Origin: Aeromicrobium tamlense
Lineage (GTDB): Bacteria > Actinomycetota > Actinomycetes > Propionibacteriales > Nocardioidaceae
Direction: 5' to 3'
Length of the DNA stretch: 64,000 nt
NCBI RefSeq assembly: GCF_013408555.1
Contig: NZ_JACBZN010000001.1
Span: 1,426,001-1,490,000 of the forward strand
The notes beneath the pieces were generated by a model that was given only the letters and a program-made list of their open reading frames with translations, did not search any database and was not told where the DNA came from. This document shows, piece by piece, positions 29,766 through 35,019 of this stretch (position 1 is the stretch's first letter; each line of letters starts with the position of its first letter). Position numbers and translations under genes: made by a program.

Positions 29766-29860
29766 CCCGACAGGTTACTAGCGCGAGCCCTCGCTCCAGC
29801 GGTCCGTGCGCCGCGTGTATCAGCGCGTCCTCTTCCTGCCTCGTCTCGGATGTGCGCACA

Positions 29861-30469
29861 ATGAACTTCGTGACCAGTGAGAAGTCACCCGAACCAGCAG
29901 CTCCCGACGAGGGCCCGTGGATTCGCTCCGGCGAGGCCTTCGCCCGCTGGCGTGACGGGGACCGTGGAGCGATCGACGACCTCGTCCGGGAGATGACCCC
30001 CGTGCTGTGGCACGTCGTGCGGGCGTACCGCCTCGACGAGGACGTCTGCGAGGACGTCATCCAGTTCACCTGGCTGACCCTCGTGCGCAAGGCCGACGCC
30101 GTGGAGAACCCCCGCGCGGTGTCGTCCTGGCTCATCATCACGGCCCGGCGCCAGGCGTGGCGGGTCGCCTCACGGAACCGGCGCGAGGACCCGGCCGACG
30201 ACGAGCTGCTCGCTCCCGTCCTGCCCAGCTCCCCCGCCGCCGAGTCCGAGGCGGTCGAGGCCGACGAGAGCCACCGGCTGTGGTCGGCGGTCGCCCAGCT
30301 CAACGAGCGCTGTCAGCGCCTGCTGCGGGTGATCGCCTTCGACGACCGTCCCGACTACCAGCACATCTCCGAGGACCTGGGCATGCCCGTGGGCAGCATC
30401 GGACCGACGCGTCGGCGCTGCCTCGAGAAGCTCAAGGCCGTCATCTCCGGCGAGGGGGCCACGTCATGA
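29861..30469 (+). CDS. ECF-like sigma-70 family RNA polymerase sigma factor
   Basis: About 202 aa. A sigma2-like region (RDGDRGAIDDLVREMTPVLW, then CEDVIQFTWLTLVRKAD and AVSSWLIITARRQAWRVASR) and a sigma4-like region (LNERCQRLLRVIAFDD, then ISEDLGMPVGSIGPTRRRCLEKL) joined by an acidic linker. First gene of a four-gene operon with a small protein, an S8 protease and a TPR-CHAT protease; its stop overlaps the next start (ATGA). No clear promoter is seen, so autoregulation is untested. Two other in-frame starts (29852 GTG, 29870 GTG) are possible. Confidence 0.88.
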   Translation: MNFVTSEKSPEPAAPDEGPWIRSGEAFARWRDGDRGAIDDLVREMTPVLWHVVRAYRLDEDVCEDVIQFTWLTLVRKADAVENPRAVSSWLIITARRQAWRVASRNRREDPADDELLAPVLPSSPAAESEAVEADESHRLWSAVAQLNERCQRLLRVIAFDDRPDYQHISEDLGMPVGSIGPTRRRCLEKLKAVISGEGATS

Positions 30470-30903
30470 CCGAGCGCGATCCGATCTTCACCGATCTGCG
30501 AGCGATGTACGAGGACCTCGATCCGCCGCCGGCCCACCTGGCCGACGCCATGATCGCGGCCATCGCCGCCGAGAACCTCGACGCCGACTACGAGCTGCTG
30601 AGCCTGTTGGGTCGCAGCACCGAGCTGGTGGGCACCCGGGGCTCGGGCGTCATCACCATCGAGTTCTCCCACGACGAGACGTCCATCCTGCTGCGCGTGG
30701 CCGAGGTCGACGAGACCACCCGCCGCGTGGACGGCTGGGTCACCGGCGCCGGCGCCAGCCACGCCCGCCTCACCGCAGGCGACCAGACCTGGACCGCCGA
30801 CGTCACCGACGGCCGGTTCGAGTTCGAGTCGCTGCCCGCCGGGCTGATCCGCATCTACTTCTCGGGTGACACCGAGCTCGCCACCCCCACCTTCGAGATC
30901 TGA
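30466..30903 (+). CDS. sigma-linked small protein, possible anti-sigma or adaptor, 145 aa
   Basis: No membrane segment or signal peptide. Residues ~1-50 look helical and acidic (PIFTDLRAMYEDLDPPPAHLADAMIAAIAAE), a layout like a short anti-sigma domain. The C-terminal ~90 residues appear to be a beta-sandwich resembling carboxypeptidase-regulatory/Ig-like folds (VDGWVTGAGASHARLTAG, WTADVTDGRFEFESLPAGLIRIYF). Coupled to the sigma gene by ATGA and eight bases before the protease gene. Anti-sigma function is inferred only from position and shape; it could instead be a sensor or adaptor. Confidence 0.7.
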   Translation: MTERDPIFTDLRAMYEDLDPPPAHLADAMIAAIAAENLDADYELLSLLGRSTELVGTRGSGVITIEFSHDETSILLRVAEVDETTRRVDGWVTGAGASHARLTAGDQTWTADVTDGRFEFESLPAGLIRIYFSGDTELATPTFEI

Positions 30904-30911
30904 GGACCCAC

Positions 30912-32561
30912 ATGGCCCCCGAGAACAACGACGAGCGTCGCGTCCCGAGGCTGGAGCAGTTCGACGAGTGGACCCGTCACCGCTCCGTCGCCGAGGAGCA
31001 GGGGAGACTGCTCGCCGCGGAGTCCGGCGCGCAGGTCGACGGCGTCCGCGCCAACGCCACCGCCTACCTCAGCACCCGCCTGCTGATCTCCACCCTGATC
31101 GACGTCGAGGCCGCGATCGAGGTGCTGCGCGAGGCGGCTCGGCCCTTCGACTGGACCGTCGAGGAGGATCCCGACTACCCCCGCATCACGCTGGAGGAGT
31201 CCGAGGAGGAGCGTCGCAGCCGGGTCGAGCGCTACCCGTGGGCCACCGGCTCTCTCGGTCTGGCCCGGGTGATCATCGCCGCGACGCAGAACTCCCCCAC
31301 CCGTCCGCCGGACGCGTGGACCCTGCTTCAGGCGGCGCGTGCCAGCAACCCCGAGGGTGACCTCCTGCGGGGCATCGGTCTCGACCACGTCCTCACGACC
31401 TCCCCGTTGACCCGGGGCAACCCCCTGACGCGGGGCAATCCGCTCACCCGGGGGAACCCGCTCACGCGCGGCAATCCGCTCACGCGCGGCAATCCGCTCA
31501 CGCGGGGGAACTCCTTCGCGATCGAGTCCTACGCCGACCAGGGCAGCGGTGGTCGTCAGCCGGTGGCCTTCGTGGGGCCTGCTCCGGTGCGCAGTCCCGA
31601 CGACCCCGACGCTCCGCGCCGGCCGCGGATCGGCGTGGTCGACACCGGCTGCGGCGAGCACACCTGGTTCACGTCCGCGGTCCACGACGGCTCCGGCCTG
31701 CTGGAGGGCGCGACGATCGGCCGGACCGACGCCGAGAGCGACCCCGAGCGGGTCGGCGACGTATCCGGGCCGCTCGACGGCTCACTCGACGAGGCGTCGG
31801 GACACGGCACCTTCATCGTGGGACTGCTTCACCAGGGCGCTCCCGACGCCGACATCCACTGGTGGCGGCTGCTCGACTCCGACGGCACGACGCCCGAGTC
31901 CGACCTGGCCACGGTGCTCATGCAGATCGCGAAGCTCGTGCGGCTGGGCGACGAGAAGGGACTGGCGCTCGACGTCCTGAATCTCTCGTTCGGCTACTAC
32001 CACGAGACGCCGGTGGACCACCTCTTCGATCCCACGCTCTACGAGATCCTCGCGGCGATCGGCCGCACGGGCACCGTGGTCGTGTGCTCGGCGGGCAACG
32101 ACGCCACCACGCGCCCGATGTTCCCGGCCGCCTTCGCGCCCTGGGACGGTGCGGAGCAGATCGTGAAGCACGATCCGCGCAGCACGCCGATCGTCGCGGT
32201 GGGGGCGCTGAACCCGAACCTCGTGACCGACGCGCTGTACTCGAACGCCGGCCCCTGGATCAGCGTGCACCGGCCGGGATCCTCGCTCGTCAGCACCATG
32301 CCGGCGTTCCAGGGTGGGCTGGAGCCGGTGGCCCGCATCCGCCACGGTCAACGCGACCGCGAGGCGATCGATCCGGACGACTTCCGCGGGGGCTTCGCGG
32401 TGTGGAGCGGCACCTCGTTCGCGGCTCCCGTGTACGCCGCCGAGCTGGCTCGAAGGATCGGTCGACACCTTCCGGCGCCCGACGCCCCGGCCCTGTCGTC
32501 GGAGAAGATCGTGGAGCAGAACACCGCAATCGTGGCCAAGCTGGCAGACGCTCGACCATGA
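30912..32561 (+). CDS. cytoplasmic subtilisin-like (S8) serine protease with PLTRGN repeat linker
   Basis: 549 aa, no signal peptide. Residues 1-160 are a charged region of unknown fold. Residues 165-200 are six perfect PLTRGN repeats. The catalytic domain (about 238-520) has Asp244 (IGVVDTGCG), His298 (ASGHGTFIVG), oxyanion Asn396 (CSAGNDATT) and Ser502 (WSGTSFAAPVY), so the triad is complete. Most S8 enzymes are secreted; this one is not. It is third in the sigma - small protein - S8 - CHAT operon, eight bases before the CHAT start. The repeat linker between the two halves could be an activation or cleavage region; that is inference. Substrate unknown. Confidence 0.92.
   Translation: MAPENNDERRVPRLEQFDEWTRHRSVAEEQGRLLAAESGAQVDGVRANATAYLSTRLLISTLIDVEAAIEVLREAARPFDWTVEEDPDYPRITLEESEEERRSRVERYPWATGSLGLARVIIAATQNSPTRPPDAWTLLQAARASNPEGDLLRGIGLDHVLTTSPLTRGNPLTRGNPLTRGNPLTRGNPLTRGNPLTRGNSFAIESYADQGSGGRQPVAFVGPAPVRSPDDPDAPRRPRIGVVDTGCGEHTWFTSAVHDGSGLLEGATIGRTDAESDPERVGDVSGPLDGSLDEASGHGTFIVGLLHQGAPDADIHWWRLLDSDGTTPESDLATVLMQIAKLVRLGDEKGLALDVLNLSFGYYHETPVDHLFDPTLYEILAAIGRTGTVVVCSAGNDATTRPMFPAAFAPWDGAEQIVKHDPRSTPIVAVGALNPNLVTDALYSNAGPWISVHRPGSSLVSTMPAFQGGLEPVARIRHGQRDREAIDPDDFRGGFAVWSGTSFAAPVYAAELARRIGRHLPAPDAPALSSEKIVEQNTAIVAKLADARP
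31404..31511 (+). repeat. six in-frame 18-bp repeats encoding PLTRGN
   Basis: Six head-to-tail 18-base units, each encoding Pro-Leu-Thr-Arg-Gly-Asn with no amino-acid change, inside the S8 protease gene. The DNA units differ at synonymous positions (Leu TTG/CTG/CTC, Thr ACC/ACG, Arg CGG/CGC, Asn AAC/AAT); only units four and five are identical. The peptide therefore appears to be under selection while copies arise by duplication. Confidence 0.97.
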
Positions 32562-32568
32562 TGAAGGC

Positions 32569-35019
32569 ATGCTCGCCGCGCAGGAACTCCATCGCCGGGG
32601 CCTCGAGCACCTTCATCAGTGGCGCTTCGCATCGGCCCGCCGGGAGTTCCGCCGTGCGCTGACGCGCGATCCCTCGGACGAGCTCCGCGCGCGGATCCTC
32701 GTCAGTCTGGCCCTGGTCGTCGCCGAGCTGGGTGAGCCGGACGCGGGCCTGGAGCTCTGCGCGGAGGCGCACGCGATCGGGGTCGACTCCCCCGAGATCA
32801 CCGCCCTGATCACGAGCCAGGAGGCGGCGCTGCACCAGCGGCGCGGTGAGTACGAGCGGTCGCTCGCGCTGTACGAGCAGTCGATCGACGACCTCCCCGA
32901 CGGCTCGCTCGAGCTCGCGAACAGCCTGAACGACCTCGGGGTGGTGCGCCTGAGGGTGGGTGACTTCGCCGCCGCGGAGGCCGACTTCGCCCGCACCGCC
33001 GCGGCCTTCGAGGAGCTCGGGGACGCGATCGGGCACGCCACGGCGCTGCACAACCGCGGATATGCCGCGATGCGGCGCTGGGACCTCGCGGCGGCCCTGC
33101 GCCTCATGGAGGAGGCGCGACCGGTGCTGGCGGAGGGCTCGCAGGTCGGGCTCGCTCTCGTCGACCAGGACCGTGCGGAGGCGCTGATCCACGCGGGCAT
33201 GTCGAGTGAGGCCGTCCCGCTGCTCACCTCGAGCGCCGCGATCCTCGGTCGACACCGCCACCACCAGATGCGGGCGGAGTGCGAGTTCGTCGCGGCCAGG
33301 GCGATGCTCGCCACCGACCCGCAGCGGGCGCTGCGTCTGGCCCGGCGCACCGCCCAGCGCCTGCGCCGGATCGGCAGCGAGTCCTGGGCCCTGCGCACCG
33401 AGGTGGTCGTCGCCGTCGCCGAGGCACGTCTGGCTCCGGTGTCGTCGGCGTGGCTCGAGCGCACGGACCGGCTTGCGGGCGACCTGCGGGGCCACCACCT
33501 GGACCACGAGGCTCAGCTCCTCGACCTGAACGCGGCCCGCGCGGCCACGGGCATCGGCGAGGTCGACGTCGCTCTCGCGCGGCTCGAGCGCGGCCGCACG
33601 AGCGAGACCGACTCGCTCACGGAGCGGCTCCTCGAACGCGCGGCACTGTGCGATCTCGAGCTCGCGGCGGACAGGAGCTCCGAGGCGCTCGTACACCTGC
33701 GCACCGGCCTCGACCTCCTGCACGACTGGCAGTCGTCGTTCGGCAGTCTCGACATGATGAGCTCGGTCGTCGGCCACGGCCGTGGCCTCGCGACGACCGG
33801 GATCCGCATCGCGCTGGCGGACGGCGATCCCGAGGTCGTGTTCGAGTGGTCGGAGAGGGCGCGAGCCCTCACGTCGCGGGTCGTGCCGGTACGGCCGCCC
33901 CGCGACGACCGAGCGGCGGCCGACCTCATGGAGATCCGCACCCTCACCGTCACCGAGCCCGAGCCCGGCACCGCGGAAGCCCGTCGGCTCGCCGAGCTGC
34001 GCGAGCGGGTTCGTCGGCGGGCCTGGCTCGACGCGGGGTCCGGTGAGGTGCACCAGATCAGCGATCTCGAGGACGTCGAACGCGCGCTCGGTGCCGATAC
34101 CGCCCTCGTCAGCTACCTCTGGGACGGCGACGCCCGCCTGCTCGCGCTCGTCGTGACCGACGCCGTGCGCCAGCTCGTGGACCTCGGTCCGTCCGCACCA
34201 CTCGTCCGCGTGCTCGCGGGTCTGCGTGCCGACCTGGACGTCAACGCCAGCGTGCTCGGCGACGCGATGGCTCGGGTCGTGCGCCTCGGCCTCGAACGGC
34301 GCCTGGCCGACGTTGCTGCCGCGCTCGTGCAGCCGGTGCTCGACCTGATCGGTGACCGGCGGGTCGTCCTGGCGCAAGCCGGCATCCTCGCCGGTGTCCC
34401 GTGGTCGATGCTGCCCGGGCTGGTCGGACGTCCCGTCACCGTCGCCTCGGGCGCCACACGCTGGCTCGCCGTCCGCGGGCTGCCCCAGCCTCGCTCCGCC
34501 GGCCTCGTGGCAGGACCGGGCGTGCCGCGCGCGATCGAGGAGGTCAAGCAGTCGGCAGCGCGCTGGCCGGGCGCGGTCGCTCTCACCGACGGCGACGCGA
34601 CCGTCGCGGGAACCCTCGAGCTCGCCGGACGGGTGGACCTCCTGCACGTGTCGGCTCACGGCCGTCACGCCGTGGAGAACCCGCTCTTCTCCGGGCTGCT
34701 CCTCGCCGACGGCCCCCTGTTCGGGTACGACCTCGACCAGCTGGCCGAGGTGCCCGAGGTCGTCGTCCTCTCGGCGTGCGAGGTGGGTCGCTCGACGCAG
34801 CGCTGGGCCGAGGAGTCGCTCGGCATGGTCAACGCGTGGCTGCACGCCGGCGCACGATGCGTGATCGCCTCGCCCGCGGCGGTGGCGGACGACGAGGCCT
34901 GTGAGGTCCTGCAGGACGTGCACCGTCTCATGGCCGCCGGCACTCCCCCGGCCGTGGCCCTCGCCGAGGCCACCGCCGACCGGCCGACCTCGTTCGTCAG
35001 CTTCGGCGCCGGCTGGTGA
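32569..35019 (+). CDS. TPR-CHAT domain cysteine protease
   Basis: 816 aa, cytoplasmic. Residues ~1-430 are helical repeats of TPR type (RRGEYERSLALYEQSIDDLP, then LANSLNDLGVVRLRVGDFAAAEADF). The C-terminal CHAT domain (about 500-816, caspase/separase clan CD) has the catalytic dyad in LLHVSAHGRH (His697) and VVLSACEVGRS (Cys737); both residues are present. ATG at 32569 follows GAAGG and is eight bases after the S8 stop. CHAT-TPR proteases are known to be activated by a bound partner and to cleave a dedicated substrate; the S8 protease or the small protein upstream are the obvious candidates. It ends nine bases from the convergent pyrF stop. Confidence 0.93.
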   Translation: MLAAQELHRRGLEHLHQWRFASARREFRRALTRDPSDELRARILVSLALVVAELGEPDAGLELCAEAHAIGVDSPEITALITSQEAALHQRRGEYERSLALYEQSIDDLPDGSLELANSLNDLGVVRLRVGDFAAAEADFARTAAAFEELGDAIGHATALHNRGYAAMRRWDLAAALRLMEEARPVLAEGSQVGLALVDQDRAEALIHAGMSSEAVPLLTSSAAILGRHRHHQMRAECEFVAARAMLATDPQRALRLARRTAQRLRRIGSESWALRTEVVVAVAEARLAPVSSAWLERTDRLAGDLRGHHLDHEAQLLDLNAARAATGIGEVDVALARLERGRTSETDSLTERLLERAALCDLELAADRSSEALVHLRTGLDLLHDWQSSFGSLDMMSSVVGHGRGLATTGIRIALADGDPEVVFEWSERARALTSRVVPVRPPRDDRAAADLMEIRTLTVTEPEPGTAEARRLAELRERVRRRAWLDAGSGEVHQISDLEDVERALGADTALVSYLWDGDARLLALVVTDAVRQLVDLGPSAPLVRVLAGLRADLDVNASVLGDAMARVVRLGLERRLADVAAALVQPVLDLIGDRRVVLAQAGILAGVPWSMLPGLVGRPVTVASGATRWLAVRGLPQPRSAGLVAGPGVPRAIEEVKQSAARWPGAVALTDGDATVAGTLELAGRVDLLHVSAHGRHAVENPLFSGLLLADGPLFGYDLDQLAEVPEVVVLSACEVGRSTQRWAEESLGMVNAWLHAGARCVIASPAAVADDEACEVLQDVHRLMAAGTPPAVALAEATADRPTSFVSFGAGW

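What the first reader, a model, noticed from the sequence alone, without database searches (positions are those of the whole stretch)
29861..35019. Compact sigma - small protein - S8 protease - TPR-CHAT protease operon inserted between mihF and pyrF
Seen: four plus-strand genes with junctions of -4, 8 and 7 bases, inside a minus-strand housekeeping block. The operon brings together an ECF-like sigma factor, a small protein that may restrain it, a cytoplasmic subtilisin with a complete triad, and a TPR-CHAT protease with intact His697/Cys737. Known: TPR-CHAT proteases control ECF sigma factors by cleaving a partner in type III-E CRISPR (TPR-CHAT/Csx30/CASP-sigma), and CHAT/SAVED proteases do so in CalpL/CalpT/CalpS. 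Here there is no CRISPR machinery, and a second protease is added. Inference: a stand-alone stress or defence cascade in which the TPR part senses a signal, the CHAT protease activates or is activated by the S8 protease, and sigma release changes transcription.
Basis: partly seen in the sequence, partly recalled or inferred. Interest (0 to 1): 0.93.

Follow-up and report, generated by a model that had tools for sequence, protein, structure and literature searches.

The report
Sigma–two-protease switch with hexapeptide array
Four neighbouring genes in a soil-type actinobacterium look like a self-controlled switch built from a transcription factor, a small partner and two proteases, one of which carries a string of identical six-residue motifs; the gene set was known, but how it works has not been tested.

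Summary
In detail: the four genes, their junctions and the S8 and CHAT catalytic residues are as stated. The window is Aeromicrobium. All four genes occur in 112 of 120 distinct related loci. A 2022 review already describes this gene context as ECF54, with control by proteolysis proposed and untested, so the combination is not new. (2) A promoter-like element, GTATCA-N16/17-CTC[CG]T, precedes the operon, also in most loci where S8 comes first, and often recurs just after CHAT. (3) In Aeromicrobium it also precedes a 341-aa gene found in 6 of 7 operon-bearing and 0 of 42 other genomes. (4) The site is empty in 22 of 23 operon-negative relatives read. Best reading: an autoregulated ECF switch controlled by a zymogen protease cascade; the cascade is inferred, not shown. 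No evidence for defence was found, but neighbourhoods of the other loci were not scanned for it.

The parts
29817..29845 (+). predicted sigma-specific promoter: GTATCA (29817-29822), 17-nt spacer, CTCGTC (29840-29845)
   Evidence: GTATC[ATC]-N14-18-CTC[CGT] upstream of sigma in 95 of 118 distinct loci (controls on the same sequence: opposite strand 6, reversed 5); upstream of S8 in 8 of 13 S8-first or doubled loci
29851..29860 (.). dyad TGTG-CG-CACA near the predicted transcription start; possible operator or extended promoter element
   Evidence: TGTGNNCACA in 43 of 96 promoter-bearing loci, at the same distance from the -10 box in 39 of the 43
29861..30469 (+). ECF-type sigma factor (ATG 29861; GTG 29870 possible)
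   Evidence: homologue in 118 of 120 distinct loci
30466..30903 (+). 145-aa small protein: two helices plus beta strands (sandwich-like), carboxypeptidase-regulatory-like in some relatives; candidate sigma partner
   Evidence: no Pfam hit itself; relatives P0053 and P0044 match PF13620 below its cut-off, P0058 does not; AF2 pLDDT 82.5; in 117 of 120 distinct loci
30912..32561 (+). cytoplasmic pro-subtilisin (peptidase S8), 549 aa; triad D244/H298/S502
   Evidence: no hydrophobic N-terminal stretch
31062..31397 (+). folded propeptide-like domain of the S8 protein (about residues 51-162)
31404..31511 (+). tandem hexapeptide array 6 x PLTRGN between propeptide and catalytic domain
   Evidence: a 6- or 7-residue array in 122 of 122 readable distinct S8 sequences
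32569..35019 (+). TPR-CHAT protease, 816 aa; H697/C737

Best explanation
It is an autoregulated ECF (ECF54-like) signalling operon controlled by a protease cascade. Shown by sequence: the four genes are one conserved module; a dedicated promoter-like element precedes the operon and a few other genes; the S8 protein has the make-up of a cytoplasmic zymogen with a folded propeptide, a (predicted) disordered array of identical hexapeptides and a catalytic domain. Inferred: the small protein, whose gene overlaps the sigma gene, holds the sigma factor inactive. The TPR part of the TPR-CHAT protein receives a signal (or docks on the array). The array is where the S8 zymogen is cut, by CHAT or by S8 itself, freeing the protease from its propeptide. 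The freed protease (or CHAT) destroys the small protein, so the sigma factor is released, switches on the whole operon (positive feedback) and a small regulon: in Aeromicrobium the 341-aa heme-binding-like protein, in other genera a gene or non-coding RNA just downstream.
For: Quartet conserved. The element precedes sigma in 95 of 118 distinct loci and S8 in 8 of 13 loci where S8 is first or modules are doubled. Second copy after CHAT in 46 of 103 distinct loci (controls 1 and 1 of 104). 341-aa gene in 6 of 7 operon-positive and 0 of 42 negative Aeromicrobium genomes, with the box upstream in all six, one of them ending CTCGTG. S8 model matches pro-subtilisins including the propeptide. The array lies at the propeptide/catalytic junction and has low pLDDT. 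Its unit keeps Pro followed, in 64 of 73 distinct units, by F, Y, L, V or I, which resembles the classic subtilisin P2-P1 preference (recalled). Precedent: Csx29 TPR-CHAT cleaves the sigma inhibitor Csx30 and relieves CASP-sigma (PMC10028731, passages read).
Against: No interaction or cleavage was tested. The 2022 review says ECF54 lacks an anti-sigma factor and that proteolysis keeps such factors inactive, the opposite sign. The unit is not echoed in the sigma, small or CHAT proteins beyond swapped controls. Co-divergence of the unit with partner domains is not discriminating, and is lowest with the S8 catalytic domain, which speaks mildly against S8 specificity driving it. In the window's own genome the exact-box count (3) barely exceeds the reversed-pattern control (2). 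The seven operon-positive Aeromicrobium are close relatives, so shared descent explains part of the 341-aa link.
Confidence: 0.4

Rival explanations
1. Published ECF54 idea: there is no anti-sigma factor; the proteases keep the sigma factor low by degrading it, and a signal inhibits them, so the sigma factor accumulates. The proteases being in the sigma factor's own operon then gives negative feedback.
For: Stated as a proposal in review PMC8999054 on the basis of gene context. Proteases lie in the same operon behind the same promoter-like element.
Against: It gives no role to the small protein, which is present in 117 of 120 distinct loci and whose gene overlaps the sigma gene here. It does not explain the zymogen with a conserved array.
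Confidence: 0.25
2. The proteases are the output, not the regulators: the sigma factor and small partner are an ordinary sigma/regulator pair that turns on a two-protease effector (stress clearance, or suicide/defence), and the array is a CHAT-cut activation site as in caspase cascades.
For: The sigma-type promoter precedes the protease genes. Other genes behind box matches include a Tle1-like/DUF2235 hydrolase, an M23 peptidase-like and a trypsin-like protein, though chance hits are expected among these. S8-CHAT is doubled with a single sigma gene in L179 and L180.
Against: PADLOC finds nothing for three of four proteins and only a weak BovA match for CHAT. The window locus is a housekeeping block.
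Confidence: 0.2
3. The array is a multicopy peptide precursor: S8 trims its own array into hexapeptides that act as signals read by the TPR domain, as RRNPP receptors (recalled) read short peptides.
For: Identical 6-7-residue units, 2-12 copies, lineage-specific sequence, near-strict amino-acid identity with synonymous divergence; TPR partner in the same operon; P-hydrophobic core suits a subtilisin (recalled).
Against: No signal peptide and no exporter or importer in the operon. Unit/TPR co-divergence is no stronger than unit/propeptide or unit/small once rates are matched. A Rap phosphatase appears among the TPR matches, but so do many unrelated TPRs.
Confidence: 0.12

Closest known systems
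ECF54 sigma-factor group (Huang 2015, Casas-Pastor 2021; both known here only through passages of review PMC8999054)
   Same: ECF sigma factor with conserved carboxypeptidase-(like), subtilase and CHAT genes in its context; proteolytic control proposed
   Different: The passages read do not mention the hexapeptide array, the promoter, the regulon or a downstream RNA, and say there is no anti-sigma factor. The two primary papers were not available and may say more.
Type III-E CRISPR CASP/Craspase (Csx29 TPR-CHAT, Csx30, CASP-sigma)
   Same: TPR-CHAT protease, small protein and ECF-type sigma factor encoded together
   Different: No Cas7-11 or CRISPR gene among the four or their neighbours; a second protease (pro-subtilisin) accompanies the quartet; the small protein has no PADLOC match
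CalpL/CalpT/CalpS (recalled)
   Same: protease releases a sigma factor
   Different: SAVED-fused protease and cyclic-nucleotide signal there; TPR-CHAT plus S8 here; not compared by sequence
Pro-subtilisins and intracellular subtilisins (Tk-subtilisin, ISP; PCSK9 by fold)
   Same: triad, propeptide fold, no export signal (intracellular subtilisins are among the best PDB profile matches)
   Different: hexapeptide array at the propeptide/catalytic junction

Membership tests
ECF54 | ECF sigma factor with sigma2/sigma4 only | tested here: met
   TIGR02937 1e-17, Pfam sigma70_r2 5.3e-07; region 4 weak, 0.08 and below cut-off
ECF54 | context of carboxypeptidase(-regulatory-like), subtilase and CHAT genes | tested here: met
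   S8 and CHAT by Pfam; the 'carboxypeptidase' member only through two of three relatives scanned, sub-threshold PF13620; quartet in 112 of 120 distinct loci
ECF54 | assignment by the published ECF54 model or tree | not testable with these tools
   primary papers and model not held
CASP/Craspase (Csx29-Csx30-CASP-sigma) | TPR-CHAT protease with His/Cys dyad | tested here: met
CASP/Craspase (Csx29-Csx30-CASP-sigma) | Cas7-11 effector and CRISPR at the locus | tested here: not met
   immediate flanks are pyrF on one side, a 143-aa gene, mihF and gmk on the other; the rest of the window was not scanned for CRISPR
CASP/Craspase (Csx29-Csx30-CASP-sigma) | sequence relationship to Csx29 or Csx30 | tested here: inconclusive
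   PDB phmmer none; in the profile search the 60 rows shown of 158 are nearly all TPR or other helical proteins matched within profile positions 7-326, none named CHAT or Csx29; PADLOC none for the small protein
pro-subtilisin (S8 zymogen) | catalytic triad and oxyanion Asn | tested here: met
   D244, S502 invariant; H298, N396 nearly invariant in 94 sequences
pro-subtilisin (S8 zymogen) | folded N-terminal propeptide | tested here: met
RRNPP peptide-TPR signalling | short mature peptide bound by the TPR domain | not tested
   no binding test possible; co-divergence test not discriminating

The most novel reading that the evidence does not exclude
The S8 proteins form a large family of self-processing zymogens whose linker is a multicopy peptide array. 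Each lineage has its own hexapeptide, cut out by the protease and read by the TPR-CHAT partner, so that the operon encodes its own private intracellular peptide signal upstream of an ECF sigma factor.
Probability: 0.12. Interest if true: 0.9.

Novelty: new variant of a known kind. Interest (0 to 1): 0.66.

Why it matters
A gene context known only from surveys (ECF54) becomes directly testable: there is now a predicted promoter, a predicted target gene, a candidate sigma partner and a zymogen with a defined, conserved cut-site candidate. An array of identical short motifs kept nearly exact at the protein level while its codons drift, and rewritten as a whole between lineages, is unusual in a protease and points to exact recognition by a partner. 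In Microbacterium the same box precedes what looks like a structured RNA without an Rfam match.

Tried and rejected
CsrB/RsmZ-like decoy for the Microbacterium RNA (GGGGA motifs): rejected; CsrA (PF02599) was not found in G404, G490 (the two Microbacterium-type genomes searched) or G000, and was found in G076 and G066, two of five searched.

Hexapeptide as a mimic of a site in the partner proteins: no excess over swapped-locus controls for sigma (118), small (117), CHAT (116) or the rest of S8 (120); five or more of six residues matched in 0, 1, 0 and 3 of them. PLTRGN is found nowhere else in the own genome: 6 hits, all in the array, against 1 for the reversed pattern.

Unit/partner co-evolution: with raw distances propeptide 0.20 and TPR 0.19 stood out (97 loci); with rate-matched columns pro 0.15, TPR 0.14, small 0.14, sigma 0.10, CHAT 0.04, S8 catalytic -0.09; kept as inconclusive.

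Array selection: adjacent copies show 949 synonymous and 16 non-synonymous differences, but arrays were found by protein self-similarity, which lowers the second number. A between-species check (103 pairs with the same unit and copy number; 98 pairs with different units set aside) gave 711 and 0, against pN/pS 0.137 for the catalytic domain in the first 60 pairs; it is conditioned on the same unit, so it too leans towards zero. Null for the array finder: score of 6 or more in 0 of 121 (S8 after the array), 5 of 121 (before), 8 of 117 (CHAT), 0 of 119 (sigma), 2 of 118 (small), against 124 of 124 arrays, one of which is masked N. Seven arrays have only two full copies and rest on their position more than on their score.

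Small protein fold: no Foldseek match at E <= 0.001; PDB profile search best E 0.026.

Nocardioides 100-aa protein: one of my two references (L147) was out of frame and tested nothing; repeated in frame with three others. None of five proteins (L035, L036, L040, L098, L147) reaches a Pfam cut-off; L147 has a weak ORF126-like match, E 0.016. A protease-inhibitor idea (chagasin-like) thus has no support.

Rfam on four Microbacterium-side loci: none at gathering threshold. One-mismatch promoter search of the own genome: 10 further sites against 2 for the reversed control, not followed.
Full report
WHAT IS THERE. The window lies in a 3.37-Mb single-contig genome at G000:C1:1426001-1490000. The closest named relatives of the small protein are Aeromicrobium. 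Family searches give an ECF sigma factor, an unassigned 145-aa protein, a peptidase S8 and a TPR-CHAT protein. Catalytic residues are conserved in relatives. None of the four has a hydrophobic stretch suggesting export or membrane insertion (19-residue maximum 0.58 to 1.46).

WHERE IT SITS. In all 7 operon-bearing Aeromicrobium genomes of 49 searched, the sigma gene stands next to the 143-aa gene, mihF and gmk (families). Of 42 operon-negative genomes I read the mihF locus of 23 (the loci returned). None shows the sigma gene, and 22 show pyrF within the 1.5 kb held; 21 of these have the 143-aa gene between pyrF and mihF, and in L296 that gene is not detectable. L278 shows no pyrF, and in L276 the gap to pyrF is about 0.8 kb. 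So 'inserted' is right, but the neighbour of the sigma gene is the 143-aa gene rather than mihF.

HOW WIDESPREAD. S8 relatives (E <= 0.001) occur in 60 of 149 genomes of the family; the weaker ones cover only the catalytic part and are probably ordinary subtilases. With the S8 profile at E <= 1e-20, 31 of 396 genomes of the phylum match, again mostly with partial coverage. I collected 121 loci (window, 80 from named genomes, 40 from unnamed ones); one is a duplicate. Among 120 distinct loci, sigma is present in 118, small in 117, S8 in 120, CHAT in 116, and all four in 112. These loci were picked by S8 similarity (the named ones are the best 80 of a capped scan), so this is a conservation count, not a frequency. 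The order sigma-small-S8-CHAT dominates (86 of 121 by simple ORF order, in which overlapping open frames disturb some more). One group has S8 first, and L179 and L180 carry two S8-CHAT pairs with one sigma gene. Named genera include Nocardioides, Microbacterium, Cellulomonas, Klenkia and Micropruina.

KNOWN OR NOT. The review PMC8999054 (passages read) says that group ECF54 has a conserved context of carboxypeptidase, subtilase and CHAT domains and proposes control by proteolysis without an anti-sigma factor, with SFT86700.1 of Geodermatophilus amargosae as the model. Klenkia, in my set, belongs to the Geodermatophilaceae. The two primary papers are not held. Literature searches for the sigma/CHAT/S8 link, the array or a related RNA listed nothing more specific (listings only, apart from the review and PMC10028731). 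That is no proof of absence, since the library lacks most subscription journals.

THE ARRAY. Between an N-terminal domain and the catalytic domain, every readable S8 relative carries a tandem repeat: 122 of 122 distinct arrays, period 6 in 117 and 7 in 5, with 2 to 12 copies. In the window it is six copies of PLTRGN (31404-31511), whose codons differ while the residues do not. There are 73 distinct units of period 6 that contain a proline (two arrays, L156 and L178, have none). Aligned on it, the second position is F, Y, L, V or I in 64 of 73, the fifth S, G, P or T in 72, the sixth N or H in 59, and the fourth is the most variable. Copies within a protein are nearly always identical in amino acids although their codons are widely diverged (see the bias noted under Tried and rejected). 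The array is therefore old in each lineage, each copy is held constant, and the unit differs as a whole between lineages. Synonymous divergence argues against recent copying as the cause of identity. In the AlphaFold2 model (94 sequences, mean pLDDT 82.6) the domain before the array is well predicted and most of the array has pLDDT under 50. Fold comparison matches PCSK9 and pro-subtilisins including their propeptides. The best PDB sequences by profile include intracellular subtilisins. The array thus sits where subtilisins are cut from their propeptide. That Pro followed by a hydrophobic residue is the classic subtilisin preference is recalled knowledge; it fits cutting by S8 itself, but does not exclude CHAT.

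THE PROMOTER AND REGULON. Upstream of sigma, 95 of 118 distinct loci have GTATC[ATC]-N14-18-CTC[CGT] (controls on the same sequence: opposite strand 6, reversed 5). The spacer is 16 in 65, 17 in 27 and 14 in 4 of 96. In 13 loci where S8 is the first gene or modules are doubled, a matching element lies within 400 nt upstream of S8 in 8, by eye; one search lists box matches somewhat further upstream in L166 and L172. In the own genome the exact pattern occurs 3 times, the reversed control 2 times, so number alone proves nothing. Conservation says more: one of the three sites lies 71 nt before a 341-aa gene, and the same gene has the box in G037, G056, G077 and G088, in G121 ending CTCGTG, and in the more distant family members G066 and G131 with GTATCT, although in the window's genome and in G121 the gene has a different upstream neighbour from the other four. 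The ninth family hit, G101 (36% identity, one TAG), has no box. The gene is in 6 of 7 operon-positive Aeromicrobium (missing in G543, 88% complete) and 0 of 42 operon-negative ones, and in 9 of 149 family genomes, all nine operon-positive. The positive Aeromicrobium form one closely related group, so shared ancestry explains part of this. Some sources call relatives 'heme-binding protein'; Pfam has no match. Over the genus the pattern gave 24 hits in 7 positive genomes (control 2) and 13 in 42 negative ones (control 11); seven of the 24 are one hairpin-like site that I do not explain. In 20 genomes of other genera a similar pattern gave 50 hits and 7 control hits.

DOWNSTREAM OF CHAT. A second copy of the box follows the CHAT stop codon within 1.2 kb in 46 of 103 distinct loci with enough sequence, within 90 nt in 44 (controls 1 and 1 of 104). 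In nine Nocardioides-type loci it precedes a protein of about 100 aa (by eye); five of them scanned reach no Pfam cut-off. In Microbacterium-type loci it precedes what looks like a structured non-coding RNA with TGGGGA motifs and a terminator-like hairpin (17 sequences aligned of 26 extracted; no Rfam match for four loci). RNAalifold predicts 31 pairs, 12 with a compensatory change, nine of these in the terminator-like stem; its first helix pairs with the promoter box, which was in the alignment, and so cannot be part of the RNA, and the covariation term is small. The window has no such second box; pyrF ends about 10 nt away.

MECHANISM. Shown: conserved operon, dedicated promoter-like element, zymogen-like S8 with array, catalytic residues. 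Inferred: anti-sigma role of the small protein, cut in the array, release of sigma, positive feedback. The precedent for a TPR-CHAT protease cutting a sigma inhibitor is Csx29/Csx30 (PMC10028731, passages read). I give the cascade 0.4, the published degradation idea 0.25, proteases as output 0.2 and the peptide-signal idea 0.12; the corrections made on re-checking did not change these odds.

Noticed in passing
L061, L065, L067-L069 and other Microbacterium-type loci, just after CHAT (alignment A3): Probable small RNA of roughly 150-200 nt behind a second copy of the sigma box, with TGGGGA motifs and a terminator-like hairpin; no Rfam match in four loci scanned.
   Followed up: partly
L035, L036, L039, L040, L044, L063, L078, L098, L147, just after CHAT: About 100-aa protein of unknown family behind the second sigma box; no Pfam match above cut-off in the five scanned.
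   Followed up: partly
G000:C1:51108-52130 (L187/L218): 341-aa 'heme-binding protein' gene with the sigma box 71 nt upstream; within Aeromicrobium found only in operon-positive genomes (6 of 7, 0 of 42).
   Followed up: yes
G000:C1:557531-557558 (L188) and a site with the same sequence in all 7 operon-positive Aeromicrobium: GTATCA...CTCGTC inside a terminator-like hairpin upstream of an 86-88-aa gene (context read in four of the seven); probably a chance overlap with the box, not explained.
   Followed up: no
window 29851-29860 and relatives: TGTGNNCACA dyad at a nearly fixed distance after the -10 box in 43 of 96 promoters; may be an operator.
   Followed up: partly
L179, L180: Doubled S8-CHAT modules, each S8 with a different hexapeptide unit, sharing one sigma gene.
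   Followed up: no
L177:8777-10258:+: Trypsin-like protein with repeated PVTRD-type motifs behind a sigma-box match next to the S8-first operon, on the other strand.
   Followed up: no
L231 and L232: Tle1-like/DUF2235 hydrolase and an M23 peptidase-like protein close behind box matches; chance hits are possible.
   Followed up: no
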